Of a DNA stretch of 64,000 nt, positions 4,216-60,856 are shown piece after piece. Source of the stretch: Carposina sasakii (Eukaryota; Arthropoda; Insecta; Lepidoptera; Carposinidae). A program made the position numbers and the translations under genes. Within the stretch, counting starts at the first letter, position 1, and each line of letters begins with the position of its first letter. The stretch is taken from positions 9,858,001 to 9,922,000 of the forward strand of contig CP053169.1 in NCBI GenBank assembly GCA_014607495.2, read 5' to 3'. The notes below the pieces were generated by a model, which was not told where the DNA came from, did no database searches, and saw nothing but the letters and a program-made list of their open reading frames with translations.

Positions 4216-5519
4216 ATATCAACCATATACACGGCAATGTTACCAATTTGGGGTCGCCAGAACTGCAAGACTGCGAATGATGCCCCACAGCCATTTACGA
4301 GTATATACGCGGAGCTAGTAAAACATCTGTCAGTCAAGTTCCTAGCTCATCGCCTGGAATCGCCTCTGAGTTCTCGTCTCTTACGACATGCATGGAAGGT
4401 GATGCAGCTGATGTATTGCAGCTGCACTATCACAGGCTAGATATGCATCAACCTAGCTACCTACAACTTACACAACTTTAATACCGTGAAGATTTTATAT
4501 ATTTCCAACAAAAAATTTGCTCCTTCATTCTAGACTGTCACGTTGGTTTAGTTAAATTTTGAATAAAAAATTGTATAGGTAGGTAAGTACCAACTTTAGT
4601 ACTACTTACTTAAGAGCCAGCAGTCAAATAAAAGTCCCACGGTTGCTCCGCCCACATACCCCGCCACCCGCAATGCAAGGATACGCGTTAAGATCTGCGT
4701 AGTGTTAAAATTCGAAATTCGCGCGCTTTCGAGCAGGCGGGTCAACGCTAGGTCAAACGCAGAGAACATAAAAACCCATAGAGTCGTTATTATAATTAAT
4801 TTCAATGTTATGTTTATTTTATTTTTGTTTGCAAAATACAATTAAATTAAATTAATTTATTTATTAATAAGTAATATAGGTATGTTAAAAAATCATTCAT
4901 ACAATAGAACACATTACCTGCATCATAGTTATATTTATGTATGAAATTCATCCAATGCAACAAGTATTAGGAAGTTTTGAATAAAACGGATTAATGGTAG
5001 ATATCAAAGATTTATTTTATATATCACAAAAAATAGTATCCGATACATATGTGAAATGGGACCAATTTACTCATGTAGATCGCTTTTAAAAAGGCTTTTA
5101 GGTGAGTCAATATGTTAAAATGTTACAAGTAGTAACTTAACAAATTTTAATATTAAGATGATTATGTAAAAAAATGCCGTTTCATTTAGGTAAATTGCTG
5201 TATGTTAAATATAAATAGTAGGTGTTTTTTAAAAATAAAGGGTTAACAGGTATGTATAATGTGCATTCGCAATATTAGCTGTGCATAAATAAAAAAAGCT
5301 TTATTTAAAGATAAATAGCGGTATGCGTATGCCACAAATATAAATTGCAGTTTGATTAGCAATATTCTCATTTGAGGATTTTGCTGTGCAGTCAGTAATT
5401 TTTATATGAATTCCAATTATTTGTGACTAAAAAAAATAATTTTATTTGATGTGCGTTTAAATACTATACAATTAAATTAAATGATTTTTCTTACTAATCC
5501 TCTACACTCCCCAAGAAAT
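4216..5519. other. Intergenic AT-rich sequence, no gene recognised
   Basis: A locally GC-richer patch at about 4615-4770 contains a 79-codon minus-strand frame without recognisable similarity. The rest is AT-rich. Nothing here could be supported as a gene. Confidence 0.4.
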
Positions 5520-6322
5520 ATATATGTTGCCCGCGACTTCGCCCGCGTCAACAAACAGAATAAAATATTTTAAAGTACTTCTGCGTAAATTATATTTTTT
5601 GTTTTATTTTCTTGTGGCAGAAGAACATACTGATTTTCTCCGCAACCCGATCTTGACAACGCGACATATAATTGGCCGTGTGAAAAGCAGTCTTGACGTA
5701 AGTCAATTCCAACGTGTTTAAACGTTTGCCCCTGTGATTTATTAATTGTTACAGCAAAAGATAACTTAACAGGGAATTGAATTCTTTTAAAATGTTGAAT
5801 AACTTTTCCTAAGACGGTATTTTCATATCTCTCAAAATTTAGCTGGGCTGTTAAGGGTTCTGCATCAGGTTATCTAGACCTTCAATTTTATTACGTTATT
5901 AGAAAGTGCTTATCATGCTGAGCAACTTTTTCTAAGACGGTATTTTCATATCTCTCAAAGTTTAGCTGGGCTGCTAAGGGTTCTGCATCAGGCAGTCTAG
6001 ACCTTCAATTTTTTCTTTCATATCATTTCTACGTCATTTTATTCTTTCATACAAATTTTTTGGATAACTTGAACCGTTTACGCAGCGCACGCAACGGAAG
6101 TCTCCAAAGTTGAATAATTATCCCCGTTTTTTCCACATTTTCCTCTTATTCTTCGTCCCTATTGGTCGCACTGTGATGATATATAGCCTAAAGCCTTCCT
6201 CGATAAATGGACTATCCAACACAAAAAGAATTTTTTAATTCGACCCAGTAGTTCCGGAGATTAGCGCGTTCAATCAAACAAACAAACAAACAAACTCTTC
6301 AGCTTTATAATATTAGTATAGA
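5520..6322 (-). mobile_element. Helitron remnant with helicase C-terminal fragment (copy A)
   Basis: Read on the minus strand, it starts at 6322 with the Helitron-type 5' end TCTATACTAATATTATAAAG, preceded by A. It ends in a GC-rich hairpin next to GCGGGCAACA, where the expected CTAG has decayed. Between about 5530 and 5790 the minus strand encodes the end of a Pif1-type helicase: [13 protein letters not shown] (motif V-like) and [10 protein letters not shown] (motif VI-like). The Rep domain and most of the helicase are gone, so it is an internally deleted, non-autonomous copy. An internal 85-bp block (around 5800-5880 and 5930-6010) is duplicated. It closely matches copy B at 13877-14721. 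Confidence 0.85.
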
Positions 6323-6982
6323 TTTACCTTATACAGTAAAATACCTTCTGTTCTATGCTCCACCTTATCTGTTACCATCAAACTGTCAATCGGAGAGCTA
6401 AAATATGAAATGAGTTTAAAAATATCAAAAAAGTTTTAGTAGCCAAAAGTGAAAACAAGTGAGCAAAAACAACAAAATTATAGCAGGTAGGTAGGTTCTC
6501 ACTCACTTTTCTTCAAACATTACAGGTGGTATTAGTTCGGTATAAACTTTAACGGGCGACTCCAGGACTTTTTGTTCGGCACAATTCAAAATATTGTAGA
6601 TAAGGAACTGCTGCCGAAGATGCTACGTAGTAAGTAAAGATGGGTCGGATTAGGTAAAAATCGTACCTGTTCGACCTAATACATACTAATATTTATGCAA
6701 TATGGCCGTTCCATTACTGTGATCCATTACGTATTAGATAAATACGTAGAATCTTTATTCGGTGAATATTTAGTATCGGTTTTCGGTGAATGATCCATTA
6801 TCTAATAAATACCTACGTAGAAAGAATAGTTGTGGAAATAGAAAATATCGTGATAATAGCGAAATGCATTTTTTATATTAGGTTAAATTTTTAATATTTA
6901 GTTAAATTGTTTTTAGTTTGTGTCACATATTTTGTTTAAATAAAGGATTTTAATTTTGTAAAAAAAAAAGGAAAAAAAAGTA
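6323..6982. other. AT-rich intergenic sequence
   Basis: No coding frame or recognisable element. Short duplicated words (ATCCATTACGTATTAGATAAATAC-like) occur near 6720-6800. Confidence 0.35.
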
Positions 6983-7062
6983 TTGACTGTACCCGGATAC
7001 GAACCAGGAATATCTGATTTACGACTCCGCCGATGTAACCGCTGGGCTATCATAAACTTGTT
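6983..7062 (-). repeat. tRNA-like sequence (SINE head or tRNA pseudogene)
   Basis: The minus strand reads like a tRNA: a D-arm-like AGCCCAGCGGTTAC, a variable middle, and a T-arm-like CCTGGTTCGTATCCGGG. The A-rich stretch just before 6983 would be its tail. The acceptor arm does not pair cleanly, so a functional tRNA gene is unlikely. A tRNA-derived SINE fragment is the better reading. Confidence 0.5.
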
Positions 7063-9151: not shown

Positions 9152-9345
9152 TCTTCTTCAGCCTATTGCAGTCCACTGCTGGACGTAGGCCTCCCCCAGG
9201 GCACACCACAAGGCTACTGCCATAGGGGGGTTTGCCCATAGTCACCACGCTGGGCAGAGGGGTTGGTGACCGCAGTGTGATTTTCGGAGTATGTTGTCAG
9301 CACGGGAGGCGCTGCTGCCCGCCTCCCGGAAACGCCACCCTGCTA
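9152..9345 (+). mobile_element. SINE-like repeat, family 'CTGCTGGACGTAGGCC'
   Basis: Carries the block CCACTGCTGGACGTAGGCCT, CACCACGCTGGGCAG and GACCGCAGTGTGATTTTCGG. Near-identical copies lie at 22684-22866 (minus), 25535-26035 (interrupted) and 43427-43590, with fragments near 37755, 46340 and 50580. It is a short, high-copy, non-coding repeat typical of lepidopteran SINEs. Confidence 0.75.
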
Positions 9346-14990: not shown

Positions 14991-15012
14991 TTAAGCGAAT
15001 TTGCGTCTGCCG

Positions 15013-15363
15013 CACGGTGGGCTGAAAAACGGCTTTCATAGACATAGGAATCAAAAGTGGCAAATACCGAATTTCTAATCGAATATCGCTTCTACTAGTT
15101 ATTATCATATACTCAAATGATACTCGCATCAATCTGCACAAAAACAAAGGACTTATAATTTTTTTACGAAAAATTTGTATGAAGCTAGAATAAAAATTTA
15201 ATTATCTCTTAAACGGCAAGGAAAACCGTAATATCCTTACAGGTAGTGTTAGTACTAATTATTTATGATTTTTTGACGTACTACAAATAACGGTTATCAC
15301 TGCCGATTTTTTTTAAAAAATCATCAAAATATTTTTATTTATTTTTACATATGAAACGGTTCC
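15013..15363. repeat. Transib terminal inverted repeat, left arm
   Basis: Begins CACGGTG and ends at AAACGGTTCC. It is the inverse of 18577-18927, with differences I could see only at an ACGGCAAGG/ATGGCAAGG site, a TGTTAG/TTTTAG site, one base in a T/A run, and ATATGAAAC/ATACGAAAC. The mirror-image short frames in the two arms are not genes. Confidence 0.93.
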
Positions 15364-15643
15364 CTTTATTGTCTAACTTAAGAAAATCGATATTATGAAT
15401 GTGGTTAACTCAAATGATATGAATTTATAGGTATAAAACAAGAAAAATATAAAAAAATGCTGTTTATTTTAAGTTACAAAAATGTTCTTAATTATACAAA
15501 ATATTCAATTAAATTATAATTGAACCAAATAGTACAGTAATCTTACATAATTAATAAAAAAAATTGAAAAATGAGAGTGATGAAAATTCGTATTTTTTTT
15601 TACATTAGAAAGAAAGAAAGAAAAGAAGTATATTTTTCTTATA

Positions 15644-17758
15644 TTACGAATTTTCATCATTCTCGTTGTCGGATTCCAATTCTGAGTCAGAATCCAAGTT
15701 AGTTACATCTAAAAACTCGAACTCAGTTTCCTGAAACTGGATTAAGTCGAGAGTTTCACCAAAAAAGCTTAGTTTTCTCTTACTATCTAGCTTAGGCCTT
15801 TGTGCACTTAATAAGGGATCAGAGGAAATGACAAGCATATTTAAAATATCTTGATTTGAATCTTGCCTGCTTCTTTTTCGCGAATGATTTTCCCGGAACC
15901 TCCTAAAATCTTTATTTCGCGACTCTGAGGCTTCTTCAGAGAGAGCCCCAATGGGCACAATGTCATTTTTCTCAATGATGTCAGCCCCGTGTATTAACAA
16001 TTTATGTACGGTTGCCGACATGTAGTACCAATCGTATAATTCTACGTACTTTTCTGCCGTTTTGCGGGAAAAATCTTTGAACTTGTTCACATCGATTTTC
16101 TCGCCAGATGTTATTGCTTGCAAAATCACAGCAAATCTTTTTATGAGCTCCTCATCCAACCCGGTAATAGCTGCAGTTGTATTTGGAAACTCGAAAAACT
16201 TTCGTGCGGTATTGCCATCATTGGTGGTTCCCGAGCCCTGTTTTACTATATCAATCAACAGATTGAGCTCATCTTTAAATTTGTCCTGAATGTGTTTTTT
16301 TCTTGTCTGCAACATTTCTTTGTGCTCATTACTTCTCGCTGCCCACTGTTTGAAGTCAAGCCTGTACGCAATATGTAACAGACATTCCATGCAATTTATA
16401 CGGGCGTGTAAGGATGACAAACCAAATTCATATACGTCAGAACACACAGTCTTCGAAGTTACAACATCTAATCGGTTCATTTCTGTTGGTTTTGCTAAGC
16501 ACAGGTAGCACGATGCGTTTGATCTGGCTTCAGAAAGGTACGTGCAGACTTTAGCGTCGATCATTGTCATCATTAGATGATGAGTCACCCTGTTATTATT
16601 ACTGCTCTCTGTGGGGATAAGATCCTTAATTTCATCATCCATTTGTCTTTTGTGATCAATTACAACTGCTTCACTCTCTTTTACAAAAGTAAACTGGACT
16701 GGACGACAATACAAAGCTGAGCATGGTTTTGGGTTCGTCCATAAAGTATTATCTCCATCTGTCAGTTTTAGTGGGACCAAAGAGGTCATAAAAATGCTGG
16801 AATCATCCTGCTCGCCCTCCATTTTCTGCTTGTACCGGCTTTGGTTGGAGGCACCATCAAATCCCCACTTGGATATCAGCTTTAGCTGCTTATTTTGCAC
16901 ATCGTCAGAAAGACTTTGAAGAATCCTCGTCACTGTGATGTCCAGTAAAGCTTGAAGTGTAATTCGAGCCGATGAATCCGTAACTGACACTGATTGATTC
17001 GGAGGGTAGCAACTAAGCTTAGTTTGTTGCACTTTGTAGTAAGATGGATATATATCATTAGCACCTTCGCGAATGGCAGCCTCTCGCAATGTAATATATT
17101 GCCACTTTGATAGTTTTAGTGAAAGAAGCAATCCAAGCGCTTTCTCTGCTGTAAAAACCACTTTTTTCACTGGTTTTTTAAGCGTCTCACTAATTGTAGC
17201 CGCTGCTTCAGGATTTTTCATCATATATTCGATCACTGAAGCGATATCTCCATGCCCTTCTTCTTTTAAACGTGCTGCAGCTGCATAGGCCAATTCACTG
17301 GAATCTTCGCTTGTATGGTCATCAGATCTTCTCTTTTTCTGTTTGTTTCCTAGATCTTCAAAGGGTTTTCGGGACCTTTTTGTCATTGTCCCAACAGACG
17401 ATGATGTTACTGCACTAACGGACGATGACGTCGACGGTTCTTGAGAGATGGTGTGTATATCATCAATAGTTTCTCGATTAACCAAAGTTTGCACACAACT
17501 TGGCCAATCAATATTTGCTTGCAGCCAATTTCCGTACAGTCTTCTGAAATTATCAAGGAATCTGCTGGATTTCTGCCACCTCTGTAAAGCAGCTCGCGTA
17601 AACCTTCGACAAAATTCTTTAACAGTTACTTGATCTTCGACAGAAAGGCAATCGCCTATGCGGGATACAAGTGCACCAAACAATACTTCATGATTAAATG
17701 AAGTAGTCTCACTTTTTAGAAGAACAAACAAGTCTAAATTGGTGATTAAACTTTCCAT
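15644..17758 (-). CDS. Transib transposase, RAG1-core-like, intact
   Basis: This 704-residue uninterrupted frame starts at the ATG of MESLITNLDLF; the frame opens six codons earlier without an ATG. Residue positions: about 110-155 is a Ser-rich then basic linker (KRSRKPFE, KQKKRRS). KWGFDGASNQSRYKQK with D301 is the first catalytic aspartate block. MIDAKV with D401 is the second. CYLC (C417, C420) matches the RAG1/Transib zinc cysteines, and HKLLIH (H585, H590) the zinc histidines. SEEASESRNKDFRRFRE (glutamates 608-612) is where the third catalytic acid belongs. The C-terminus is acidic. The length is normal for Transib. Known for the family: DDE cut-and-paste transposase using a hairpin mechanism like RAG1. 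All catalytic residues are present, so activity is possible but unproven. Confidence 0.95.
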   Translation of the reverse strand: MESLITNLDLFVLLKSETTSFNHEVLFGALVSRIGDCLSVEDQVTVKEFCRRFTRAALQRWQKSSRFLDNFRRLYGNWLQANIDWPSCVQTLVNRETIDDIHTISQEPSTSSSVSAVTSSSVGTMTKRSRKPFEDLGNKQKKRRSDDHTSEDSSELAYAAAARLKEEGHGDIASVIEYMMKNPEAAATISETLKKPVKKVVFTAEKALGLLLSLKLSKWQYITLREAAIREGANDIYPSYYKVQQTKLSCYPPNQSVSVTDSSARITLQALLDITVTRILQSLSDDVQNKQLKLISKWGFDGASNQSRYKQKMEGEQDDSSIFMTSLVPLKLTDGDNTLWTNPKPCSALYCRPVQFTFVKESEAVVIDHKRQMDDEIKDLIPTESSNNNRVTHHLMMTMIDAKVCTYLSEARSNASCYLCLAKPTEMNRLDVVTSKTVCSDVYEFGLSSLHARINCMECLLHIAYRLDFKQWAARSNEHKEMLQTRKKHIQDKFKDELNLLIDIVKQGSGTTNDGNTARKFFEFPNTTAAITGLDEELIKRFAVILQAITSGEKIDVNKFKDFSRKTAEKYVELYDWYYMSATVHKLLIHGADIIEKNDIVPIGALSEEASESRNKDFRRFRENHSRKRSRQDSNQDILNMLVISSDPLLSAQRPKLDSKRKLSFFGETLDLIQFQETEFEFLDVTNLDSDSELESDNENDENS

Positions 17759-18184
17759 TATTTGATTTAAAATCACAGAGCAAATATTATTTAGTGTTAA
17801 CAGTTACACGGATGTGAACAATTTAAATTAAAAGCAAAAGTTTAGTCCTTTTATAGCAAAAAATCGATAATTAGTTAACTACCCCCATTAGACTTTTCAA
17901 AGAAGTACTAAAGAAAACTTATAGTCGACAATATAACACATTAGCACAACTAATTACCACATTAGCTAATCAGAAAAAAGTGATGCAGTCCAAAGATTGC
18001 ATTGTTGCGCGATATTGCTAATTATTTAATCACCTATTTAGTCTCTTCAGAAGCCTAAATTATTAGAATTACTTAATCACTTACCTAGTTACAATGAAAC
18101 TAAACAATTACTTAACAATTCTTTATGGTATTTTTAATGTATCTAAAATTGAAAACTTATTTTGGTTGATCAATATCCCACTGA

Positions 18185-18440
18185 GGCCGTGTGGTGTCCG
18201 GCAGAATAGAATAGCACCAACCCTCCATACACAGGGGCGTAAAAGGCGACTAATACGCTTGTATTAGTCGCCGTTTAGCCTGAGCCTCAATAGACCAGAA
18301 AATGGGCAGCAGCATTTTCATTATACTATGGTCTTTTACATCGATCTCCAACCTGCCTGCCAAGCGTGGAGATTATGGCAACATTCTCCCACGGGAGAGG
18401 CTCAGGTCCAGCAGTGGACTGTTATGGGCTGATGATGATG
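18185..18440 (+). mobile_element. SINE inserted in the Transib element
   Basis: A 256-bp unit from GGCCGTGTGGTGTCCGGC to a GATGATGATG tail. It is flanked by a perfect 13-bp target duplication AATATCCCACTGA (18172-18184 and 18441-18453). It contains a hairpin-like pair GGCGACTAATAC/GTATTAGTCGCC and the SINE word AGGTCCAGCAGTGGACTG. The long duplication and 3' repeat tail show LINE-driven insertion after the Transib arrived. It lies upstream of the transposase start and could affect its promoter. Confidence 0.88.
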
Positions 18441-18576
18441 AATATCCCACTGAAAATAGATGTCTAAGTGCGGAAGTACAATAAACTTTTGCCTACCCTT
18501 TTGGAAGTAGACAGGGGATGCTAATTTTATATTTTGCGTTGTTAAAATTCTGTGTTTCTCAACTTAAACACGAAAA

Positions 18577-18927
18577 GGAACCGTTTCGTATGTAAAAATA
18601 AATAAAAATATTTTGATGATTTTTAAAAAAAAATCGGCAGTGATAACCGTTATTTGTAGTACGTCAAAAAATCATAAATAATTAGTACTAAAACTACCTG
18701 TAAGGATATTACGGTTTTCCTTGCCATTTAAGAGATAATTAAATTTTTATTCTAGCTTCATACAAATTTTTCGTAAAAAAATTATAAGTCCTTTGTTTTT
18801 GTGCAGATTGATGCGAGTATCATTTGAGTATATGATAATAACTAGTAGAAGCGATATTCGATTAGAAATTCGGTATTTGCCACTTTTGATTCCTATGTCT
18901 ATGAAAGCCGTTTTTCAGCCCACCGTG
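18577..18927. repeat. Transib terminal inverted repeat, right arm
   Basis: Inverse partner of 15013-15363, ending CAGCCCACCGTG at 18927, followed directly by the target duplication TGCCG. Confidence 0.93.
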
Positions 18928-19024
18928 TGCCGTCAACATTTTTTTTTTCAAACATTTTTTTACATTAGCCTACAGTATCCGTGGAATTGTTACAATCCAT
19001 ATCTGATTCTGCAAGGAGATTTCT

Positions 19025-19222: not shown

Positions 19223-19648
19223 TTAATTAATCGAACCTACAACATTTTTTTTTAAAATAAACGTGTACAAAATGTAAGTAGAAATGTACATTACAACGTA
19301 AATAAATTGACAGTTAGTGATGCGCAGTTAGTAGAAAATAGATTTTTTTAGTTATTACACTAGTGCCAAAGCTAAAAACTACAGCACAATAATCTTTGAA
19401 GGGGAAAAGAGTCCCGAGAAGGGGAAATCTGAATTGAGATGTGGGGAAAGGAAATCTTTAAAGTGGAAACACTGTTTTGTCAAGAATTTTTTCGGCTTAA
19501 GGACTTGTTTCCAGGCCAGTAAAATTTAATTTAAAAAAAAAGGCAAGGTGACGACGGTTTAGGGTTTATTGGTTTTTAATTTTCGTTCTTTAAAATTAAT
19601 TCTAATTTCGTGAAATTTCTATCTCTGTTATATCTCAAAATTGTCAAA

Positions 19649-26211
<6,563 letters not shown>

Positions 26212-27229
26212 CTGTATAACGGGTAGGTGCGAGGGAGACAGAGGACCTTTGGTGACCCTAAACTTGCAAGGATTGCTATTGCTACGAGAAAACGACGAAA
26301 AAACTGCGTATTTTGCACTTTTTGTATTTTTTGGTCCTTCGAACCGGATGCTAGTGCGATAGACTTATCTCACTCGTTAAAAAACTATAGTTTATAATTT
26401 ATTTCATTTGCAGTGTGTGCGAAAGAAACAAAATATGCAACACGCAGTTTCTCATGTTTGATTTGGATTGGTCAATTGCGATTAATTAAAAATAGTGTTC
26501 GCTAATACGCTGTGGAATGACATTTTTTTATTTTAAGTCTAAATCTTTATTTGGCTATAATTATTGATATTTTGTGTTTCTTTTTTAATTTTTGTTACGA
26601 CTGTGCTTTATACATAATACATAATAATACTTAATTTGAGTACATATTAATTGTATGAAAAATAATTATTTTTCTATCTCAAAGATATCTTTGTGAAACC
26701 AAATGAATATGTACCTAATATTTTTCTTATTTTTATATTGCAATGGATTCCTAATCCATAGAGCGAGATGCAATGCTGTCTCTCTTATCTCTCGCTCGCA
26801 CATCCAAATACTGTTGTTAAGTTCCAAAGCGAAAAAAATCCTGGATTTTTTGTGAATCGTAATCTATTAACTTAACTTTATAACCCTGCAAAGTTTCAGC
26901 GACAGAGGAATTATGTTGAGTCTCCATACAAAGGATTTCCTCGTCGATTGGTCTAATAAGGAGAAAGTACTGTCTCTATTTGGATCAACTTTCAAAGAAA
27001 GATGGCATCAACTTAATCCTTTAGCTATGGTTATCATTGTAAAAATCTACCCTTATTAAATGTAAAAATACCAGTGCTTATAAAAATATGTTTATCTAAT
27101 CTGTGATTTTGATTTACCTACCAATGTATAACATTTATAAGTAAGTCGACGTTTGTTAAATGTTTTTTGAAATTAAATATTTTGTAATACTTCAAGATTT
27201 TGGTATCAATTATTAGTTTAAGTCATAAT
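26212..27229. other. LRRC47 3' region and intergenic sequence
   Basis: Contains the LRRC47 3' UTR of unknown extent. No clean AATAAA close to the stop was singled out. No other gene. Confidence 0.4.
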
Positions 27230-27813
27230 CTGCACCCGTATGATGAATTTGGTGAGAGCGAGATCTTTTAAACGTCAAATCCACAGAGCTAAGTAATGAC
27301 TAGACAAGGCAAGTGTTTCTACTTGGTGTGTAAAAAGGGATTGCAAACCACTTCTATCAGCCCTAATTCACTCAGTCCTGGCTCGAGAACGTGTGTCTAT
27401 TCAAATTCTTAAGTCTATTTTTTACATGCAAAGTACACTTAGTTTATCTAGTTATTAATAACGAGTCTCGAGTGAGACATCTCGGTCTCACCAGCACCCG
27501 TATGATGAATTTGGTGAGAGCGAGATGTCTCACTTTTAAAGTAAAATTTACAGAGCTATCAATAACTAGATAAACTAAGTGGATATACTTTGCATGTAAA
27601 AAATAGTCTTAAGAGTTAGAATAGACACTCGTTCTCGAGCCAGGACTGAAGGAATTAGAGCTGTGTTAGAAGGAATTAGAGAGAAGTGGTTTGTAAACCC
27701 TTTTTACACACCAAGTGGAAACACTTGCCTTGTCTAGATATTAGTTAGCTCTGTGGATATGACGTTTAAAAGTGAGACATCTCGCTCTCACCAAATTCAT
27801 CATACCGGTGCAG
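27230..27813. repeat. 584-bp composite palindrome
   Basis: CTGCACCCGTATGATGAATT at the left edge is mirrored by AATTCATCATACCGGTGCAG at the right. The arms match over most of their length, including CAAGGCAAGTGTTTC and TTTTTACATGCAAAGTA in both orientations. The outer end sequence recurs near the centre (CACCCGTATGATGAATTTGG at about 27488), so the right half is itself a MITE-like unit and the left half an inverted partner. No target duplication was identified. Confidence 0.85.
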
Positions 27814-28044
27814 ATTCATCTACGGGGGCTGTTTTGGTTTACGGTCCCTATTGTGTGGACCAAAAATTCCGTCATAATAATGTTACGTAGAGATGAAGTC
27901 CATTAACACTTTAACGGTATTTAAAAATGACATATGACAGCTAAATGCATCGAATAGCCTGTGCTGGCTGATGTGGAGTTTCACTAGAATACATCAGCTG
28001 CATCTCCTTCCGTGCATGTCGTAAGAGTCGTCTAAGGAACTCGG

Positions 28045-28234
28045 CCCCCTGATTACCTAATTTGCAATAACAAAACCGAAGCAATGCGATAGCGAAAATT
28101 GTACAATATTCGCCTTGAAATGTCACAAGTTCCTTTGAAATTCATTTTACGTAATACGAATTTGACAAGCAATCGGCGATTTTTGTACAATTTTCGCTAT
28201 CGCTTTGTCTTTGCTAGTTAGGTAATAAGGGGGC
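28045..28234. mobile_element. Palindromic MITE family 'TTATTACCTAACTAGC', copy 1
   Basis: About 190 bp with inverted arms CTAATTTGCAATAACAAAAC...GCGATAGCGAAAATTGTAC and the mirrored GTACAATTTTCGCTATCGC...GCTAGTTAGGTAATAAGGGG. The centre is TTTTACGTAATACGAATTTG. Sister copies: 34831-34990, 37009-37196, 41793-41975, 49553-49742. Non-coding. Confidence 0.8.
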
Positions 28235-28411
28235 GGGCTTTCCTTTAGGCGATAAACTAGCAACTTGTCGCTGAACATTAACATCTGTCCCCGCTATGCC
28301 GAACGTGGGATGTCATTTAGGATCTACAACCGTGTCTATAATGTTTGTGTATGGAATAACTGTTTGACTTAACCAATGTTTATTTAATGTAATATTCTTT
28401 TGTAATAGCAC

Positions 28412-29251
28412 TACAGGGTGATTTTTGGTCGTCAACGTTACCGAAAACTACGGAATCTCATCATCACGATCATTTTTCTCCATGGAACCATACCTGGGAA
28501 GTGTCTGGTTTCCAAAATATTAGGGTCTAATGATGAATAAATATACTGCGGTTTTCTGCATAAATGCACACTGACCCGTATAGCAAGATTTTTTCACGAG
28601 AAATAATTATTATCTGTCTATGAAATAACTAGCTGTTGCCCGCGACTTCGTCCGCGTCAACAACTTATCATGCTGAGCAACTTTTCCTAAGACGGTATTT
28701 TCATATCTCTCAAAGTTTAGCTGGGCTGCTAAGGGTTCTGCATCAGGCAGTCTAGACCTTCAATTTTTTTCTTTCATATCATTTCTACGTCATTTTATTC
28801 TTTCATACATATTTTTTGGATAACTTGAACCGTTTACGCAGCGCACGCAACGGAAGTCTCCAAAGTTGAATAATTTTCCCCGTTTTTTCCACATTTTCCT
28901 CTTATTCTTCGTCCCTATTGGTCGCACTGTGATGATATATAGCCTAAAGCCTTCCTCGATAAATGGACTATCCAACACAAAAAGAATTTTTTAATTCGAC
29001 CCAGTAGTTCCGGAGATTAGCGCGTTCAAACAAACAAACTCTTCAGCTTTATAATATTATTAGTATAGATAATAGTATAGATAATAAATATAATAAACAC
29101 TGGACACTATAAATTTTGCCCGATCTAGTAATTTAAAAAAAAATCAAAAAATTTATATCGTTTCCCACCATTTTTTTGGCATAAACTTACTTTATTTGAT
29201 GTATAAAGTACGTATCCTTCGTTAAGGGTGGGAACGAAAAAACACCCTGTA
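28412..29251. mobile_element. MITE family 'TACAGGGTGATTTTTGG', carrying a Helitron insertion
   Basis: Ends TACAGGGTGATTTTTGGTCG and AAAAAACACCCTGTA are inverted. The same 390-bp unit occurs uninterrupted at 35485-35873 and 37218-37603. Here it is split by Helitron copy C at 28629-29069. TA at the ends suggests a Tc1/mariner-type duplication. Confidence 0.8.
28629..29069 (-). mobile_element. Helitron remnant (copy C), internally deleted
   Basis: Ends in the hairpin and CAACAGCTAG before T, and starts TCTATACTAATAATATTATA after A, as in copy B. It lacks the helicase fragment entirely. A second TAGTATAGAT word lies just outside at 29073-29082. Confidence 0.85.
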
Positions 29252-43100: not shown

Positions 43101-46100
43101 CGAGTCTGAAATTTTTGGGATAGGTTCCTTTTAGTAGGCTATTTACAAAACTTTTCGCTTAACATACCCCTTTTGTTACATCCTGCATGTGCATTATGAA
43201 TTCCTAATGATTTCTTGTCTTTGGTCTAACCTTAAACATTTCAAATCCAGCTTTTCGCCCACATCTCGACGGCGTACTGCCACCTCCACGAGAAGCTTCT
43301 AGAAGAGAAGCCGTACCCTCCACCTGCAGACCCTCACAAGATCATCTCCACCGCGGAATTCTTTGACGAGGCTACTGTAGAAAAATTGGCACCCAAGTAT
43401 GTAATGACTATTATTCTATACCAAACTTCTTCTTCTTTAGCCTATTGCAGTCCACTGCTGGACGTAGGCCTCCCCCAGGGCACGCCACAAGGCTACTGCC
43501 GCAGGGGGGTTTTGCCCATATTCACCACGCGGGTTGGCGAAAGCAGTGTAATTTTCGGACTATGTTGTCAGCACGGGATGCCGCTATAACCAGCGATTTT
43601 GTAGAACATCACGCTTGCACAACTACGAGTAAATTCAAGGGGTACATTTACCTAACCCGCAAAAAAAGCTGAGATTTCTCATCCGTTCTCATCAGCTGCT
43701 TATTTCATAAAGAAAATGGCGATAAAATGGTAAATAATATTTTGTGACCCATTTACTATCTCTAAATTATGGAAAGACGAAGAATTGCTCATCATGATGA
43801 TGATATCGTTACAGTATTTTAAATTTTCAGGCTTCTAGACAAACTGCCGAACACTTACGCTTTCACAAAGGCCTTGGGAGAGGCTCTAGCTGTGGAAGCC
43901 ATGGAACATATACCTGTGGTCATCCTCAGACCATCTATAGGTAAATATTTCCGACAATACAATACAATACACCCATAGTAAAAGACAATACAATTGTTTG
44001 TAACCTCACAATTTGTGGGTCTTATAAGTTGTTACTTCCCTTTCCCTGTACAAATACTCGTAATTCTGTATCTTCATGTGTTTTTTGGTCGTCAACGTTT
44101 CCAAATACTACGGAATCTCCTCATCATCTCGATTTTTTTTCCATGAAAGCATACCTTGGAAGTGTCTGGTTCCCAGGATATTAGGGTCCGAAGTTGAGTA
44201 AATAGACTGCATTTTTTGTACAGGGTGTAACAGAAAGGGTATGTCAAGCGAAAAGCTATGTAAATAACCCACTATAGACAACCTATTTCCAAAATTTGAG
44301 ACTCGAAATCACATGTTTATTTTTTAAGATGAACATTCCTGAGTTGTGTAGGAATTCTTCATACTATCTGGAAAAATAAACATGTGATTTCGAATCTGAT
44401 AGGTTCCTTGTAGCGGGCTATTTACATAGCTTTTCGCTTAACATACCCCTTTTGTTACACCCTGTATAAATGCACGTTAGACGCGTGTAACAAGATTTTT
44501 CCAGGACATCATAAATTCCGCCCGATCATCTTATTAAAAAAATATTTTAAAGAAAATGCACATCGTTTCCCAGCATTTTTTTTGGCATAAACTTACTTTA
44601 TCCGATGTATATAGTACGTACAGTCATCATCAAATCTAGCCTGTTAAGCGATTTATGTGTTGTTATAGTGCTCAGTGATTTTGAAAATCTGAATGTGTTC
44701 ATCGACTTTTGATGCTGACTGTACCTACCCGTATTTACCCTTCGTAAATGGACAGCCTGTATGCGTGTCACTGCATGGTTATAGGATTCGATGTCGGTAA
44801 TTAGCTCATCTATTTTTAGACTTTGTGCAACTGAGTGCAAAGTACTTAAAGTAGATCTTTTTTTTATTTATTTATTATACAGGATGTTTTTTTGTTTTCT
44901 GTATGTATGTATTACCAGCCAGGGATTATTCCCTTGGTCATCTAGGTGGGCCCTACATAGTTTACAGCTAAATTTTGCATATTACGTACTTAAGTATAGG
45001 TATAATAACAGCAGCTCTTGGTTGCAGTTATTCCAATTTGGAGAGAACCACTTCCCGGATGGACGGACAATATTAACGGACCTACCGGACTTCTTATAGG
45101 TAAGTTAAATTACTTAGTTACTTACATACTTAATGGTAATTAAATGTTTCTACCTAATGTAATTAACCTAACAGCATTTTTAACTACGAGTAGCTTGACA
45201 ATAATAGAAAAGATCATTTTCGAATCATACCAACTTAGGTACGAGTATTAAGTTTAACTTACTTAAGGTGATGAGGGAATGTGGTAGGTAGATAAAGGAA
45301 ATTAGGTCGTGAAAAGGTGATTAAAAGGATTTGTGGAAAAAAAAAGAAATCGTTTGTTTGTCCTTGCCACAATAAAATATAGCATTCTAAGGACTCAAGT
45401 ACCTACCTCTGTCTCCAACAGGTGCTGGTAAAGGAGTCCTGAGGTCGATGTACTGCCGCAGCGACACCTATGCTGACTACATACCGGTGGACGTCTTCGT
45501 TAATGGAGTCATGATCGTCTGCTGGAACTACTTGTGTTATGGGTAAGTTAATAAATAAAAAAATACACACTTTGCAACATATTAACCTAGTCCCATACTA
45601 AGATACCTAGTACCTAAGGTCTTGTGTCGTGGGTACTAAGCAACACATAATTATATTGAAAAGTATACAAGAAACCATGACTCGGAATGAGGACATCAAT
45701 ATTCATCATAGCAATGTTTCCACCTACCGAGATTGGACCGTAACTTGGAAACAGTTTTTCCTTCTTATTTCTGAATAATTTCGATGTTTGATTTTCTTTC
45801 TGTGGTCCATGCTGTTGAAGTCCACTAAACATGTTTTTCTTTCTAACAGCGATAAAAAATCCAATGTCTTGAACTTCACGAGTTCAGCTGAGGTGAAGAT
45901 CACATGGCACGACATGATTGAGACGGGCAGAGAAATCATCGTCAATAAGATGCCACTAAACGGAGTTGCGTGGTAAGTCTAGAGTCCATTTCACAGAATA
46001 GTTCTTTTCTCAAGTAAGGATACCTACCTATAAGTACAACATTTTTGGTATCCAAATATATAGATAATTAATGTATGTAGTCACACGGAGAGCAATTAGC

Positions 46101-49100
46101 ATCGCCAAAAAAACTGTTTGGCGAATTTGTAGGTTGGCATTTGGTAATACTTCTCAGTTGGTAAAATGCCGCTCGCCACGCTCGCTACATACCGTTGTCC
46201 CGCTCACTCACTAATCTAAGGTAATACTAGATCTTCTGTTGTTTTTATCCCTAGGGTCCTATTCTCGTGTCATTCGACATAATCTTAACTCGACGTAATA
46301 TTTAACTTCGTTAATAATCCTTGATCATCATCATCATTTACAGCCCTGGGAAGTCCACTGTTGGACATAGGCCTCCCCCATATAATCTTTTTCTTATTCT
46401 TTATTGCAAATACACAAACAATATAACATGACTACATATTATAAAACAAAGTCGCTTGCCGCTGTCTGTCCGTCCCTATGTATGCTTAGATCTTTTGAAC
46501 TATGCAACGGATTTTAATGCGGTTTTTTTAAATAGACAGAGTGATTCACAGGGAAGGTTTATACGTATAGTATCAGCTTTGTACCCGTGCGAAGCCGGGG
46601 CGGGTCGCTAGTACAAGATAAAAGAATGATGCATGTACAGTGGCAAGCTTATATATCTACAAGAGGTCTCTTCATTTTTACAAGAGATTTTCTTCATTTT
46701 CCTATTAAAATAATTTGATGATGATGATTAAATTAAGAATCCTTGTGACCTACTTAAGGCCCTTCTTTAAAAGTATTAAAATAATTTAAAAACAAAATGG
46801 CGGATTGGCGGAAATATTTTTTGCTTATAGATCGTGTTCCAAGAAAATCTTATCGGAAAATTTACAAGAAATACCCGTTGGTATATAGGTACCTACAATA
46901 ATAAACTTGTTTTCTAAGTACTTACTTTAGTAACCTTTTTCACGAAAACATGAGCCTAAGCACCTTTGACCTTAGCTGACACTGTATTTTTATTAAAGTG
47001 TTCATTACTTATGTGCCTACATGATTTGATTATGCATAACTTTGTAGAATATTTTTACTTATACTTAGCTATAATTAATTATGTTATGTAGGTATGTTAA
47101 AAAAAGCTATTTTAGCATTAAATTCACGACAGCAGCGTATGGAAGTTTTTATAGGTATTGCAGCATTGAATGCATCCTGGTTGCTATATAGAAATAGCAT
47201 GCATGGACCATTCTAGCTTGCAGCACGCTAAACATGCAGACGACGTCTCGAAGGTTTGCTGGTTTATAAATAAATAAATAAATAGACATCACATCCCTAC
47301 TTATCAACAGGTGAAAATCGTTTGGGTAACTTTATTTACCTCCATTTAAATAATATACTTTCCTCCAGGTATCCTGGAGGGTCTATGAAGAACTCCCGGC
47401 TGCTCCACAACATCTGTGTGCTGCTCTTCCACTGGATCCCGGCGATTCTGGTCGACGCCCTCCTCTATGTTCTTAGATACGAGCCTGTGTAAGTAGATTT
47501 CTACTTCTAGATTTCTTTATTCCTCGTCTAAGTTCACAGACCCAACAACTGATGATCCACCATACCCTGTGTTCCCAAAATGAGGTAGCCAAAACTGCGA
47601 GAGCACAAAGGAGATCCACCTATAGTCACGTTTAGCTTAGCGGGGCCAGATTTTGTAATCAGTGACAAGATGCCTGAGGGAACGCCCCTGAGTTCCATAG
47701 TCATAGATAGATATAGATATGCACCTATCTATATATAAGGAGATGCATCTTATGTACAATTCAACACAGGCTCTACCTATAGTGGCCTATAATGTAGGTA
47801 CATACATATAATCACCTTTTCACGCCTTAACCCTTACGGGGTAGGCAGAGCACCGAGGGCCGATAGAATCACATGGTGCCACTTCTGACCAATTTTGAGG
47901 GTATAGTTGAGATGTACAAGTTCGGTTAGTAGTGACAGGTGGTCAGCCCATCGCCTACAAAACACCAAGACCCTCTTGTCCCTCTACTGACTTGTACAGT
48001 ATGCCCGGGAAGAGAAGCAGCTGTAGTATATTCGAAATAGCTACATCGCTTATTACCTACATACGGCCAATAACCATCAAGTAGCTACCGAACTTGATAC
48101 AAGAGCACTTACCTAAATAACACGGCAAATATTTCCCTCAGTCTGAAATCAAACCCACTACCATACTCTTGAATATTTGCCGAACCGAAAACTAGGGCGT
48201 TATGCAATAATTACGCAAGTACCTACCTATCTCATGAATCACGCCATCTCTGTGATAGTGACCATGAGCGAAATGGTATTCTAAATTATAGGAGATGCCA
48301 GCAGCTTCAATTTCAAGAGCGACAGTTTACATTTAGTCAAAGGAAGCCGTTATTTAGCGCGTTCGCTAAAAGAACTAAGTACTTGATGTTGATCTAAAAA
48401 GAAATCTCTTGAAAAATAATTGTTCCCGTTAATGTACGGAATTTAATTTACAAAATCTATGTAAATACGCCTGCTTGTTTAGTTAGTATCTATGGAATTA
48501 TAGATACATTTCATTAAAAAGATGTGGTCAGAGACCTTGACACGGTTGGTTTTATAGTGACTCTGACTCGTAAGTTACAAAACGAGTATTTCTCGTTACA
48601 AACTACACGTGTTTGATCTTACGACAGCAAAACGTGTTTTACTATAGTCTGTCATTCATGACTAGTAAAAATATAAGCAAAATTTTGATTTGTAAAATTT
48701 TATAGAGACGATGAGATTTTTCATAGGTCATTTTGAGAAATACTTAGGTATGGTTTTGAGTTTTGTCTTAGCATAGGCCTTTGGCAAGTTTTTATGAACG
48801 ATTAACATAACTTAGTTCTAATTATTCAGGGAGGACTGAAGGAAGAAAAAGACTTAAAATCAAACGTCGCTTCAAGGTAGGTAGATACCTTCTTATCTTT
48901 AGTTTCTGTCAAAGAACGTACCTACCATATATCTTCATTCAACAATTATCTTAAACTATCCCTACAAGTACCTACGTACCTAATCTACCTACTAGGTACA
49001 CTATTCTATCTGACCTAGTCTATTCTGACTGCCGCACTGTAAACTTAATCTTAGTTTGGTCTATCCCCCTCCGTTCTTAACAAAATGGCTGAGATAACAG

Positions 49101-50797
49101 GTAGGACTAATTTTACGTTTAAGTTTGATGATCAGAATCGAACATAATATTCAACATGATACCTACTATATACCTATAGATTATATATATATAACTTTAC
49201 CAATTTTTTTCTACTCCAGCCTGGTTCGAGTTCAGAAGAGGATCAACAAAGGTTTCGAAGTGTTCGAATACTACACGAACAACCAATGGGACTTCCAGTC
49301 GGATGTGGGGCAGATGGTGCGCCAGCGGCTCAATGCGAGAGAGAAGGAAGATTATAAAGTGGATTCCGTAGGTAAGAAAGAGATATTCACACTTAACGTG
49401 TCATTTTATGATGGCTCCACACGATATGGGAGATTAGCCCTGTGCAGGAGATATGTATGTAGTGCACTCTATTCCTTCACGCTCATAGACAAATGGGACG
49501 GAATGCCGACACGGCCGGAGATAGTTTAGGCGCTGGACCAATGGTTTTACATGCCCCCTGATTACGTAAAAGCAATAGCAAAGCCGAAGCAAAGCGATAG
49601 CGAAAATTGTACAATTATTCGCCTTAAAATGTCAAAGTTCCGTTCAAAAACATTTTACGTAATACGAATTTGACAAGCAATCAGCGATTTTTATACAATT
49701 TTCGCTATCGCCTTGCTTTTGCTAGTTAGGTAATAAGGGGGATGCTTTCCGAGGCACGAGCTGAGTGACAATGTTACTACATTAAAATTGATTGATAGGC
49801 GCACGTCTAATTCATTGGCCACCATGAGCCACGTTGTTAGCATAGCGGACCATGATGTAAATAAATGATCATTGACAAGTCGCTAGCTCATCGCCTGACA
49901 GTACACCCTTGACTTCCTTAGAAGACTGCACGGAAGGAGATGCAGCTAATCGAGAAATAATACCTACTGACATAGTTTAGTAAAATAACATAATCTTTCT
50001 GTTATCTTCAGGGGTGGACATACCAAAATATTTCGAGGACTGCATCCACGCAGCCAGGATCTACATCCTGAAGGAAACTGATGACACCATACCAGCTGCG
50101 AAGAGGCATATGAAAGTGTACGTATCTTTTATGGGATAAGACAAGAAAATTATTTTATTGCGTATTGAAAAATTTAAATTGAATTGTTTACTTTAAGAGC
50201 TCTAACGATTATGACGCCTTTTTGTTTTTTGATAGATAGTACCTACTAGTATCTATCAAAGATACTAGAGTCTACTACAATAGTTTGTGGTAGAGACATT
50301 GGTAAAATATTAAAATTTACCGTGTATCGCATAAAATTAGTCCTACCTGTCCTTTTCTCTCTCAGCCACTTATGTTAAGAACGGAGAGATAGACCTGACT
50401 AAGATTAGGTTTAGGTTTAAGTGTTCCGGAATCGACCCTAATGTAGTCATACACAAAGTAACTAGTGATGGCGCTAGTTGGCGAAACGCACCAAGCGTAG
50501 CGTTGGGCGCCCTCCGGCCAGATGGCCCGATGACTTAAAGAGGACGGCTGGTAGCGACTGGATGACAAAAACGGGAGATCGAGCCATGTGGCGTACACTG
50601 GGGGAGGCCTACGTCCAGCAGTGGACTGCAATAGGTTGACGACGACGACGACTCTGATTAAATTTATAACCTTTATTTTTATATTAATGATTGTGAAAGC
50701 TTTATTTTTCAGCATGTGGACTGTGGACGTGATATGCAAAATTCTATTCTGGGGCTGGATTTTATGGAAGATTGCCGGATACCTATCACTGGTTTAG
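34114..50797 (+). CDS. Fatty acyl-CoA reductase
   Basis: Thirteen coding exons join in phase: 34114-34235, 37644-37737, 40738-40904, 41500-41590, 43251-43396, 43831-43940, 45028-45099, 45422-45542, 45850-45972, 47369-47488, 49220-49371, 50012-50117 and 50713-50797, giving 502 residues. TGGTGFMG (25-32) is the NADPH-binding Rossmann loop. ISTAYCH and YAFTK (about 216-220) supply the extended short-chain dehydrogenase Ser and Tyr-x3-Lys. [20 protein letters not shown] is the insect FAR block. A male-sterility/FAR_C domain follows, with hydrophobic stretches near 365-390 and at the C-terminus ([18 protein letters not shown]), fitting an ER or peroxisomal membrane enzyme. Known reaction: fatty acyl-CoA to fatty alcohol with NADPH, used for waxes and, in some moth paralogues, pheromones. 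Which paralogue this is cannot be told here. Stop TAG at 50795-50797. Confidence 0.95.
34831..34990. mobile_element. Palindromic MITE family 'TTATTACCTAACTAGC', copy 2
   Basis: In intron 1 of the acyl-CoA reductase. The right arm is truncated after GCTTCGGCTT. Confidence 0.75.
35485..35873. mobile_element. MITE family 'TACAGGGTGATTTTTGG', uninterrupted copy
   Basis: A 389-bp unit from TACAGGATGTTTTTTCG to AAAAATCATCCTGTA in intron 1 of the acyl-CoA reductase. No coding frame. Confidence 0.8.
36050..36248. repeat. CAGGGTGTAACA MITE fragment
   Basis: Shares GAAATCACA, GAACATTCCTG and GGAAAAATAAACATGTGATT with the better copies at 41069-41377 and 44221-44464. Only the right side (CCCTTTTGTTACA) is near intact. 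Confidence 0.6.
37009..37196. mobile_element. Palindromic MITE family 'TTATTACCTAACTAGC', copy 3
   Basis: Full-length copy in intron 1 of the acyl-CoA reductase, from CTTATTACCTAACTAGC to TTTTACGTAATCAGGGGG. Confidence 0.8.
37218..37603. mobile_element. MITE family 'TACAGGGTGATTTTTGG', second uninterrupted copy
   Basis: TACAGGGTGTTTTTTTGTGG to AAAAATCATCCTGTA, only 22 bp after the palindromic MITE copy 3 and about 40 bp before exon 2 of the reductase. Confidence 0.8.
37738..39093. other. Intron 2 of the acyl-CoA reductase, left part
   Basis: AT-rich intronic sequence with a short fragment of the CTGCTGGACGTAGG repeat at about 37755. Nothing else recognised. Confidence 0.45.
39094..39624. 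mobile_element. MITE with CAGTCAAACCTGG ends and reiterated inner motif
   Basis: Inverted ends CAGTCAAACCTGGATAAG and TTACCCAGGTTTGACTG, each flanked by TA, as in Tc1/mariner or pogo-type insertions. The 531-bp body repeats a short word of the form TCTCGCTTATAGAGG about eight times with small changes. No open frame. Confidence 0.82.
39768..40017 (-). repeat. Dispersed repeat family 'CGCCTTTATCCC', full copy
   Basis: Inverted full-length copy of about 250 bp in intron 2 of the acyl-CoA reductase. Starts GCTCTGGGAGTGAATAAAAC and ends CCCCGTAAGGGATAAAGGCG. Confidence 0.78.
40130..40272. repeat. Short hairpin repeat
   Basis: Arms TTCCTTTGAAGTACTACACA and TGTGTAGTGCTTCAAAGGAA face each other around a small loop, and continue through GACCAAACGC/GCGTTTGGTC. 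Likely a tiny MITE. No target duplication could be fixed because the flanks are TATG/CATA repeats. Confidence 0.75.
41069..41377. mobile_element. MITE family 'CAGGGTGTAACA'
   Basis: Ends CAGGGTGTAACAGAAGGGTA and CCCTTTGTTACACTCTG, flanked by TA, in intron 3 of the acyl-CoA reductase. Internal words GATTTCGAGTCTC and AGTATGGAG-like blocks recur in all copies. Confidence 0.78.
41793..41975. mobile_element. Palindromic MITE family 'TTATTACCTAACTAGC', copy 4
   Basis: Near-complete copy in intron 4 of the acyl-CoA reductase. Confidence 0.8.
42623..43186. mobile_element. MITE family 'CAGGGTGTAACA' with an inner insertion
   Basis: Outer ends CAGGGTGTAACAAAAAGG and CCCCTTTTGTTACATCCTG. The body is split by about 340 bp of unrelated sequence (about 42704-43050) rich in TTTATTTATTAAA at its left edge. 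The insert was not classified. Confidence 0.65.
43427..43590 (+). mobile_element. SINE-like repeat, family 'CTGCTGGACGTAGGCC'
   Basis: Copy in intron 5 of the acyl-CoA reductase, starting about 30 bases after the donor of exon 5. Confidence 0.75.
44070..44620 (-). mobile_element. MITE family 'TACAGGGTGATTTTTGG' interrupted by another MITE
   Basis: Left part (GTTTTTTGGTCGTCAACG onward) and right part (GGCATAAACTTACTTTATCC) match the 35485 copy. A CAGGGTGTAACA MITE occupies 44221-44464. Lies in intron 6 of the acyl-CoA reductase. Confidence 0.75.
44221..44464. mobile_element. MITE family 'CAGGGTGTAACA', nested copy
   Basis: Complete 244-bp copy, CAGGGTGTAACAGAAAGGG to CCCTTTTGTTACACCCTG, with TA on both sides. 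It inserted into the MITE at 44070-44620. Confidence 0.82.
46431..46611 (+). mobile_element. Short Helitron-like element, third type
   Basis: Body begins CTACATATTATAAAACAAAG and ends with CCCGTGCGAAGCCGGGGCGG, a hairpin, then GTCGCTAG before T. Non-coding, in intron 9 of the acyl-CoA reductase. The first base or two of the 5' end have drifted. Confidence 0.7.
47812..48034 (+). repeat. Dispersed repeat family 'CGCCTTTATCCC'
   Basis: Copy in intron 10 of the acyl-CoA reductase, containing GGCAGAGCACCGAGGGCCG and AGAGAAGCAGCTGTAGTAT. Confidence 0.75.
49553..49742. mobile_element. Palindromic MITE family 'TTATTACCTAACTAGC', copy 5
   Basis: Inverted full-length copy in intron 11 of the acyl-CoA reductase. 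Confidence 0.8.
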
Positions 50798-58555: not shown

Positions 58556-60856
58556 ATGAGAAGAAGTTTAGCGCCGAGCCAGACTGGCTCTGGCGATAAT
58601 GTTTTCAAGAGTCCACTGCTGGATTCAAAACGTAAACGGCGGGAATGTGCAAGAATACCTCTTGCTCAAAAATCTTCTTCTCAGGCTATGACTACGTCCG
58701 AACACGAAAGTATTATAAAACAGATACTAAGCAAACCCTTTAAGGTACCTATAGCAAACTACATATCATCATATTGCAGCAAAAGTTTAGGTTTAAAGAG
58801 GACACAAGTCAGGCGAGCTCTCCACGACCCTGACGAGCCAAACGCGCTAGTTCTCTATCGTCCGCCTCATATTCCGGAGTACGAAAGGATGAAAATGGAT
58901 CCCAAAGACATCAGAGTCGCAGTTGTAGTCGATCCTGTACTTGGAAACATCTTGAGACCACACCAGAGGGAAGGAGTCCAGTTTATGTATAACTGTGTGA
59001 CTGGGAAACAGATAGAGAATGCCTATGGGTGTATTATGGCTGATGAAATGGGTTTAGGCAAGACATTACAGTGTATAACATTGTTATGGACACTATTACG
59101 GCAGGGTCCAGAGTGTAAGCCAACTATATGCAAAGCAATTATTGTATGTCCAAGTAGTTTAGTCAAAAATTGGTTCAATGAGATAGGTAAATGGCTAGGA
59201 CAGAGGATAAATGCAATGCCAATGGATGGAGGCACCAAAGCAGATATTACATTGAAACTACAGCAATTCATGAACACATACTCTGCTACAAGAGTAGCTA
59301 TACCTGTACTTATAATTTCATATGAGACTTTCAGGATATATTCAAATATATTACATTCATCAGAAGTGGGACTTGTTTTGTGTGATGAAGGCCACAGATT
59401 AAAAAACAGTGAAAACCAAACATATCAGGCATTAATGGGATTGAAAGCTAAAAAGAGAATATTGATATCTGGAACTCCAATTCAAAATGATCTAACTGAA
59501 TACTTTAGTTTAGTACATTTTGTTAATGAAGGTATACTGGGGACAGCTCAGGAATTTAAGAAGAGATATGAGAACCCTATCCTGAAAGGGCAGGATGCCT
59601 TAGCTTCAGACAGTGAAAGAGAAAGGGCCCAGGAATGTTTGCAAACACTAACATCTATAGTGAACAAGTGTATGATTAGAAGAACCAGTAGTCTCCTCAC
59701 AAAATACTTGCCGGTCAAATTTGAACAGGTCATTTGTGTCAAAATGACCCCTCTTCAGACTCAGCTGTACAAAAACTTCATCAACTCTGATTCAATCCGT
59801 AACAAATTTTCTGGAACCAGTGAAAAGAATGCCAACACATTGAGTGCATTATCCAGTATTACCACATTAAAGAAACTTTGCAATCATCCAGACTTAGTCT
59901 ATGATAAGATTGTTGAAAGATCGGAAGGCTTTGAAAAAGCGAAAGACTTACTCCCAAGTAATTATGATATTAAGGATGTAAAGCCAGAATTCTCAGGCAA
60001 GCTAATGATTCTAGATTGTATCCTAGCTAACCTGAAAACTAACACAGATGACAAGATAGTTCTCGTATCAAATTACACTCAAACACTAGATCTTTTTGAG
60101 AAATTGTGTAGAAAGAGATGTTATCAGTACGTAAGACTTGACGGTTCAATGACAATCAAGAAAAGAGCTAAGGTAGTAGAAAGTTTCAATAATAAAGATT
60201 CCAAAGAATGGATTTTCATGCTCAGCTCTAAAGCAGGAGGCTGTGGACTGAATCTCATTGGTGCAAATCGTCTAATCATGTTTGACCCTGACTGGAACCC
60301 GGCCAATGATGACCAGGCCATGGCAAGAGTGTGGCGTGATGGACAGAAGAAGCCATGTTACATCTACAGGTTATTAGCCACAGGTACTATAGAAGAAAAG
60401 ATATTCCAAAGACAAGCACATAAAAAAGCCTTAAGTGACACTGTTGTGGATCAGAATGAGGAGTCTTTAAGACATTTTACGTCTGACGATTTAAAGGATC
60501 TTTTCCGCTTAGAAGAGAATACTCTGTCAGATACACACACCAAGTTTAAATGCCGTAGATGTATAAATAATGTACAGATTACACTGCCTCCAGAGAATTC
60601 GGATTGTACATCTGATTTATCTAATTGGTACCACTGTGCTGATAAAAAGAACTTGGCAGATTTAGTTCTAAAGCAATGCTGGGACCTGGCGAAGACCATT
60701 TCATTTGTGTTCCACCACAGGTCTGCTCAAACTGAAGCTAGTAAAGAGAAGGAAGAAGACAACAAGGAAAACGTACAGGCTAAGAAAAGAAAGAGAATAG
60801 AAGATGATGAAGATTATTCGGAGCCTGATGATAGTGCTGATGAGGATTATGAGTAA
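58556..60856 (+). CDS. RAD54L: DNA repair and recombination protein RAD54, single exon
   Basis: A 766-residue uninterrupted frame starts at the ATG of [11 protein letters not shown], as in vertebrate RAD54; the frame opens three codons earlier without an ATG. SNF2/SWI2 motifs appear in order: [20 protein letters not shown] (Walker A, about 162-170), [13 protein letters not shown] (277-280), ISGTPIQND, then in the second lobe [34 protein letters not shown] and [13 protein letters not shown]. The zinc-binding C-terminal segment CRRC...DCTSDL is present, followed by a basic/acidic tail [11 protein letters not shown]. Known role: ATP-driven translocase that works with RAD51 in homology search and strand exchange in the nucleus (okra in Drosophila). 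No introns interrupt it, unlike its neighbours. Confidence 0.97.

What the first reader, a model, noticed from the sequence alone, without database searches (positions are those of the whole stretch)
15008..18932. Young, apparently intact Transib transposon, a RAG1 relative
Seen: 351-bp inverted ends with about four differences, a perfect 5-bp GC-rich duplication TGCCG, terminal heptamer CACGGTG, and an unbroken 704-codon transposase with both aspartate blocks, the zinc Cys and His pairs, and the SEEASESRNK glutamate region. Established: Transib is the superfamily from which RAG1 and the RSS arose. Inferred: the insertion is recent, and the source or even this copy may still be mobile. Full-length copies with matched ends and a complete ORF are uncommon, so this could be a useful model.
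Basis: partly seen in the sequence, partly recalled or inferred. Interest (0 to 1): 0.9.

Follow-up and report, generated by a model that had tools for sequence, protein, structure and literature searches.

The report
Fresh Transib invasion carrying foreign SINE
The window holds one of about seventy nearly identical, apparently working copies of a RAG1-related jumping gene that spread through this insect genome very recently, and the copies share a small passenger repeat not found elsewhere in the genome, which suggests the element came from another species.

Summary
Window 15013-18927 is a 3,915-bp Transib with TGCCG duplications, long inverted ends and a 704-codon transposase. Its core is about 70% identical to the solved Helicoverpa zea Transib and keeps the DDE and zinc residues.

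(1) A genome-wide burst: 140 exact 40-bp ends in 399 Mb and only 2 more within three mismatches. Of 41 copies read in full, 24 show no difference; 44 of 63 transposase loci are complete and identical. (2) Nine of this copy's ten arm differences were already in the founder, so arms do not date it: copy divergence gives about 5,000-29,000 generations, an arm clock 1.4-4.8 million. (3) A 256-bp SINE-like insert with perfect 13-bp duplications, found at 74 places, all inside Transib copies, unlike the host's own repeat tails.

Best reading: recent arrival, probably from another species, then ordinary cut-and-paste amplification at CGNCG sites. A member of a known superfamily. Movement itself was not tested, and a genome-wide positive control for the host repeat did not complete.

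The parts
15008..15012 (.). left target-site duplication TGCCG
15013..18927 (.). Transib element, 3,915 bp
   Evidence: ends shared by 140 exact 40-bp matches in the genome; 26 of 41 copies read have no indel against the majority sequence
15013..15385 (+). left terminal inverted repeat, 373 bp (first 351 bp best conserved); begins CACGGTG
15644..17758 (-). transposase ORF, 704 aa plus stop; residues 199-677 match HzTransib, 1-98 predicted helical bundle
18172..18184 (.). 13-bp duplication AATATCCCACTGA, left of nested insert
18185..18440 (+). nested 256-bp SINE-like insert ending in (GAT)n, 427 bp upstream of the transposase start and on the opposite strand; found at 74 genome places, each inside a Transib copy
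18441..18453 (.). 13-bp duplication AATATCCCACTGA, right of nested insert
18555..18927 (-). right terminal inverted repeat, 373 bp; holds this copy's one private base change (element position 3714, window 18726)
18928..18932 (.). right target-site duplication TGCCG

Best explanation
This is a complete autonomous Transib DNA transposon, one of roughly 70 copies made in a single very recent burst in this lepidopteran genome. Shown: matched ends, 5-bp duplications at CGNCG-type targets, an intact RAG1-like DDE transposase, near-identity of copies at independent sites, no further copies within three mismatches of the end beyond two, and a SINE-like passenger found in the 41 copies read and nowhere outside Transib at the sensitivity used. 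Inferred from the family: the transposase nicks at the CAC heptamer, makes hairpins on the flanks, excises the element and joins it to a 5-bp GC-rich target. Inferred from the passenger: the founder picked up the SINE in another genome, then entered this lineage by horizontal transfer or introgression (about 0.7 likely together) and multiplied within about 5,000-29,000 generations.
Against: No transposition, RNA or population polymorphism was observed. 11 of 41 copies have broken frames and 19 of 63 loci are broken, partial or without start codon. The nearest database transposase is only 88% identical, so no donor is in hand. The 40 fetched copies were picked by identity of the left arm, which favours young copies; the TIR pattern search is free of that, the protein search scored only 63 of 467 candidates. 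One TIR end (C5:4855171) has neither a partner at the expected distance nor the SINE nearby. The genome-wide positive control for the host tail did not complete, and SINE relatives beyond three mismatches were not sought genome-wide.
Confidence: 0.92

Rival explanations
1. Vertical persistence: a rare native Transib master, which took the SINE long ago in this same lineage, was reactivated and burst; the native SINE family has since decayed beyond recognition.
For: The host holds related repeat tails at 65-83% identity to the insert, so the broad SINE/LINE kind is native. Only 26 duplication bases test the age of the SINE insertion.
Against: Two 13-bp duplications without a mismatch. No SINE head or tail outside Transib within 3 of 38 or 42 bases. 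Only 2 TIR ends with 1-3 mismatches in 40 (2.5-7.5%) against 140 exact. Described lepidopteran SINE families include ones of 533 to 16,157 copies per genome (PMC8010984, passages).
Confidence: 0.2
2. Introgression: element and SINE came by hybridisation from a close relative rather than across a wide species gap.
For: It would give the same pattern: young, identical copies and a passenger foreign to this genome.
Against: A close relative would be expected to share most SINE subfamilies with the host; not tested.
Confidence: 0.2
3. Assembly or polishing made the copies look more alike than they are.
For: Several copies carry scattered indels typical of noisy consensus: 49 indel events against 13 substitutions in 41 copies; one stretch of L077 at 82.7% with 30 gap openings.
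Against: Copies sit at different sites with their own duplications. Private substitutions such as this copy's survive. The nine arm differences are kept apart in the majority sequence. Homogenising would not create CGNCG duplications.
Confidence: 0.05
4. The insertion is as old as the arm divergence suggests (millions of generations).
For: Arms differ at 10 of 373 positions; a naive arm clock gives 1.4-4.8 million generations.
Against: Nine of these differences are in the majority sequence of copies from many chromosomes, and 35 of 41 copies show exactly nine by ungapped comparison, so they were in the founder.
Confidence: 0.01

Closest known systems
Hztransib of Helicoverpa zea (3,518 bp; PMC1852546 passages; PDB 6PQN, 6PQX)
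   Different: this element is 3,915 bp with a SINE inside; it reads 704 aa, while the solved chain starts at the equivalent of residue 195 and the 2007 paper deduced 489 aa; here dozens of identical intact copies
Transib of Trichoplusia ni that jumps into AcMNPV baculovirus (PMC4735498 passages)
   Same: CGNCG target preference; a moth Transib caught moving
   Different: sequence not compared here; no SINE passenger mentioned in the passages seen
Transib copies of Helicoverpa armigera (PMC7764229 passages)
   Same: Transib families in a moth; Transib MITE duplications given as CNNNG; a recent burst at 98% identity reported for class II elements as a whole
   Different: sequences not compared here; no Transib-specific burst described in the passages seen
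RAG1 and ProtoRAG (RAGL) recombinase
   Different: single gene, no RAG2-like partner of 200 aa or more, symmetric ends with no nonamer or 12/23 spacing in my reading
Lepidopteran SINEs PxSE1 to PxSE5 (PMC8010984 passages)
   Same: 250-300 bp range, retroposed, simple-repeat tail
   Different: the insert's RNA-derived head was not identified and sequences were not compared; no copy outside Transib was found in this genome

Membership tests
Transib superfamily | transposase homologous to Transib/RAG1 core | tested here: met
Transib superfamily | catalytic D, D, E and zinc C2/H2 | tested here: met
   D301, D401, E612, C417/C420, H585/H590, aligned with HzTransib and RAG1
Transib superfamily | 5-bp GC-rich target duplications | tested here: met
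   39 of 41 copies perfect at 5 bp, CGNCG logo
Transib superfamily | ends beginning with an RSS-like CAC heptamer | tested here: met
   CACGGTG at both ends, 140 exact ends
Transib superfamily | single transposase gene | tested here: met
   one ORF of 200 aa or more in the element
Transib superfamily | cut-and-paste with flank hairpins | not testable with these tools
   biochemistry needed; reported for Hztransib in PMC6941560 (passages)
RAGL / ProtoRAG transposon | RAG2-like partner gene | tested here: not met
   no second ORF of 200 aa or more in the element; an intron-split partner was not sought
SINE (nested insert) | target duplications and simple-repeat tail from retroposition | tested here: met
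   13-bp duplications, (GAT)n tail
SINE (nested insert) | head derived from a Pol III RNA | tested here: inconclusive
   no tRNA found in the window; none of 5 weak Rfam matches in the element reaches its gathering score

The most novel reading that the evidence does not exclude
A RAG1-type transposon is caught in the act of invading a new species, with a piece of its donor's genome (the SINE) fixed inside its copies, so that the donor species can be named by looking for that SINE; the SINE, lying 427 bp upstream of the transposase start, may also have altered its expression and set off the burst.
Probability: 0.6. Interest if true: 0.72.

Novelty: new member of a known kind. Interest (0 to 1): 0.6.

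Why it matters
RAG1 is thought to descend from Transib-like transposons, and how far Transib spread by horizontal transmission is an open point in that history (PMC7204232 passages). A family with dozens of identical full-length copies gives natural target-site data, a full-length transposase with the N-terminal part that the solved HzTransib chain lacks, and, through the SINE, a direct test of where the element came from. It also shows that inverted-repeat divergence can overestimate insertion age fifty-fold or more when the founder's arms already differ.

Tried and rejected
Relatives in viral contigs: none by protein, by TIR end or by SINE pieces, so no viral vehicle was found. The N-terminal part as a separate known domain: a search with residues 1-100 gave 14 proteins, 13 of them Transib hits and one new (P0241, Arctia plantaginis, 392 aa, not examined); folding it alone gave pLDDT 55.9, so no fold search was run on it; VIA-align rows mostly cover 199-659, so its fold is untested. 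A nonamer-binding-domain resemblance at profile positions 125-249 scored only 0.7 bits and an equivalent domain in Transibs is already in print (PMC9435367, passage), so I claim nothing new there. A separate paralogous empty site was not searched; the flank reads as a decayed hAT transposase on the left side of the insertion (Pfam E 1.7e-8), and continuity across the junction is my reading. Distant Transib families in this genome (query P0055) and the transposase-piece pattern: not completed. Literature on a Transib burst or Transib horizontal transfer in Lepidoptera: searches listed no title or abstract start that describes this element; this covers the held open-access library only. PMC1131882 is not held, so Kapitonov and Jurka 2005 is known to me only through other papers.

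Full report

A passenger. Between the right arm and the ORF lies a 256-bp insert (18185-18440) with a GAT-repeat tail and 13-bp duplications that match at every base. It is SINE-like; no RNA-derived head could be shown.

The burst. The genome (unnamed; 399,040,036 bases in 31 contigs) is that of a moth or butterfly: the RAD54 protein in the window is 90% identical to Plutella xylostella and 88% to Operophtera brumata among named hits. The left arm matched at 100% in 40 of 40 scored places out of 164 candidates. The 40-bp end occurs 140 times exactly (69 forward, 71 reverse; reversed control 0) and 142 times with up to three mismatches. In the part of the list shown (100 of 140 places) I count 47 pairs, spanning 3,894 to 4,135 bp, none near the 3,646 bp expected without the SINE and one duplication; of six unpaired ends, four have a partner end with small errors at the expected place and two do not; one of these two, C5:4855171, also has no SINE nearby. 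I read 41 copies in full (this one and 40 chosen by the left-arm search, so biased to identical left arms). 24 of 41 have no difference from the majority sequence, 26 have no indel, and the total is 13 substitutions and 49 indel events. This copy differs by one G to A at a CpG in the right arm. 30 of 41 keep the 704-codon frame. A protein search of the genome gave 65 matches, which I merge to 63 loci (63 of 467 candidates scored): 44 are uninterrupted and identical over 704 residues; one more has an open frame but, by my reading (L044), has lost its start codon; 18 are broken or partial.

Age. At 2.8-4.1e-9 substitutions per site per generation (rates for insects in PMC10048334, passages), 13 substitutions in 41 copies give 20,000-29,000 generations (95% limits 10,500-49,500), and 2 substitutions in the 26 indel-free copies give 4,800-7,000 (580-25,300). 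The arm clock would give 1.4-4.8 million. It is wrong here because 9 of the 10 arm differences are in the majority sequence of the copies, hence were in the founder.

Targets. 39 of 41 copies have perfect 5-bp duplications. The position counts are C36, G37, any, C36, G28 of 39; 21 of 39 are exactly CGNCG; GC in 20 bp on either side averages 57% against 36% in the window. L037 reads as a 6-bp duplication and L062 has none that match. PMC4735498 gives CGNCG for Transib jumping from Trichoplusia ni into a baculovirus (passages), and PMC11844651 gives CGCCG as the target in the RAG strand-transfer structure (passages). This copy sits beside sequence for a hAT dimerisation region with stop codons.

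Origin. The SINE was sought in the whole genome. A 256-base search gave 40 of 40 scored places (169 candidates) at 100%. A 38-base head with up to three mismatches gave 73 places, a 42-base tail gave 70, reversed controls 0; together 74 distinct places. I placed 70 inside Transib copies by their distance to the element end or to the ORF and four by reading the DNA. None lies outside. In 138 kb of host DNA the host's own version of the tail occurs within three mismatches at 7 distinct places, the insert's version at none. In one search, 11 host tails (10 distinct places; L010 and L040 are one place read twice) were compared: the nine others have a best host partner at 0.88-0.98, while the insert's best is 0.83. 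PMC8010984 lists lepidopteran SINE families of 533 to 16,157 copies per genome (passages). A SINE that jumped recently enough to leave unmarred duplications should have left kin in the genome where it jumped. I infer that this was another genome. Two papers show moth Transib and SINEs in baculoviruses, a possible vehicle; no viral copy was found here. The genome-wide count of the host tail, the control I most wanted, did not complete, and relatives of the SINE beyond three mismatches were not sought genome-wide.

Family context. In a tree of 36 proteins the window copy falls in a supported group of seven (100/100; with P0001, P0002, P0003, P0005, P0006 and P0007), near a group holding P0013, whose residues 195-685 match HzTransib almost throughout. 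P0013 has 705 residues, so the solved HzTransib chain lacks an N-terminal 194 residues that this close relative has. Residues 1-98 of the window protein are predicted as five helices; their role is unknown.

Judgement. Ordinary in kind, unusual in state: a clean, recent, largely intact Transib invasion with a built-in tracer of its origin.

Noticed in passing
L037 and L062: Two of 41 copies lack a matching 5-bp duplication: L037 reads as a 6-bp CGCCGC duplication, L062 has CACCG against CGACG, perhaps recombination between copies (interpretation mine).
   Followed up: partly
window 15644-17758, residues 1-98: A conserved N-terminal helical region is present in Transib relatives of about 700 aa but absent from the solved HzTransib chain.
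   Followed up: partly
P0105 and P0113 in alignment A1: These two relatives have Asn where the second catalytic Asp stands (MINGK for MIDGK); P0113 stands for 40 member sequences.
   Followed up: no
window 18245-18272: The nested insert holds a 12-base inverted repeat with a 4-base loop (GGCGACTAATAC / GTATTAGTCGCC).
   Followed up: no
window 9152-9197, 22746-22867, 43431-43476, 46329-46379, 50600-50645: Copies of the host's own SINE/LINE tail module, 69-77% like the insert's tail.
   Followed up: partly
window 58559-60853: RAD54-like gene as one uninterrupted 765-codon ORF.
   Followed up: no
window 19634-20284: Leucine-rich-repeat ORF of 217 codons just beyond the Transib.
   Followed up: no
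L046, L049, L068, L077: Some copies carry many scattered small indels, which looks like uneven assembly quality in repeats.
   Followed up: partly
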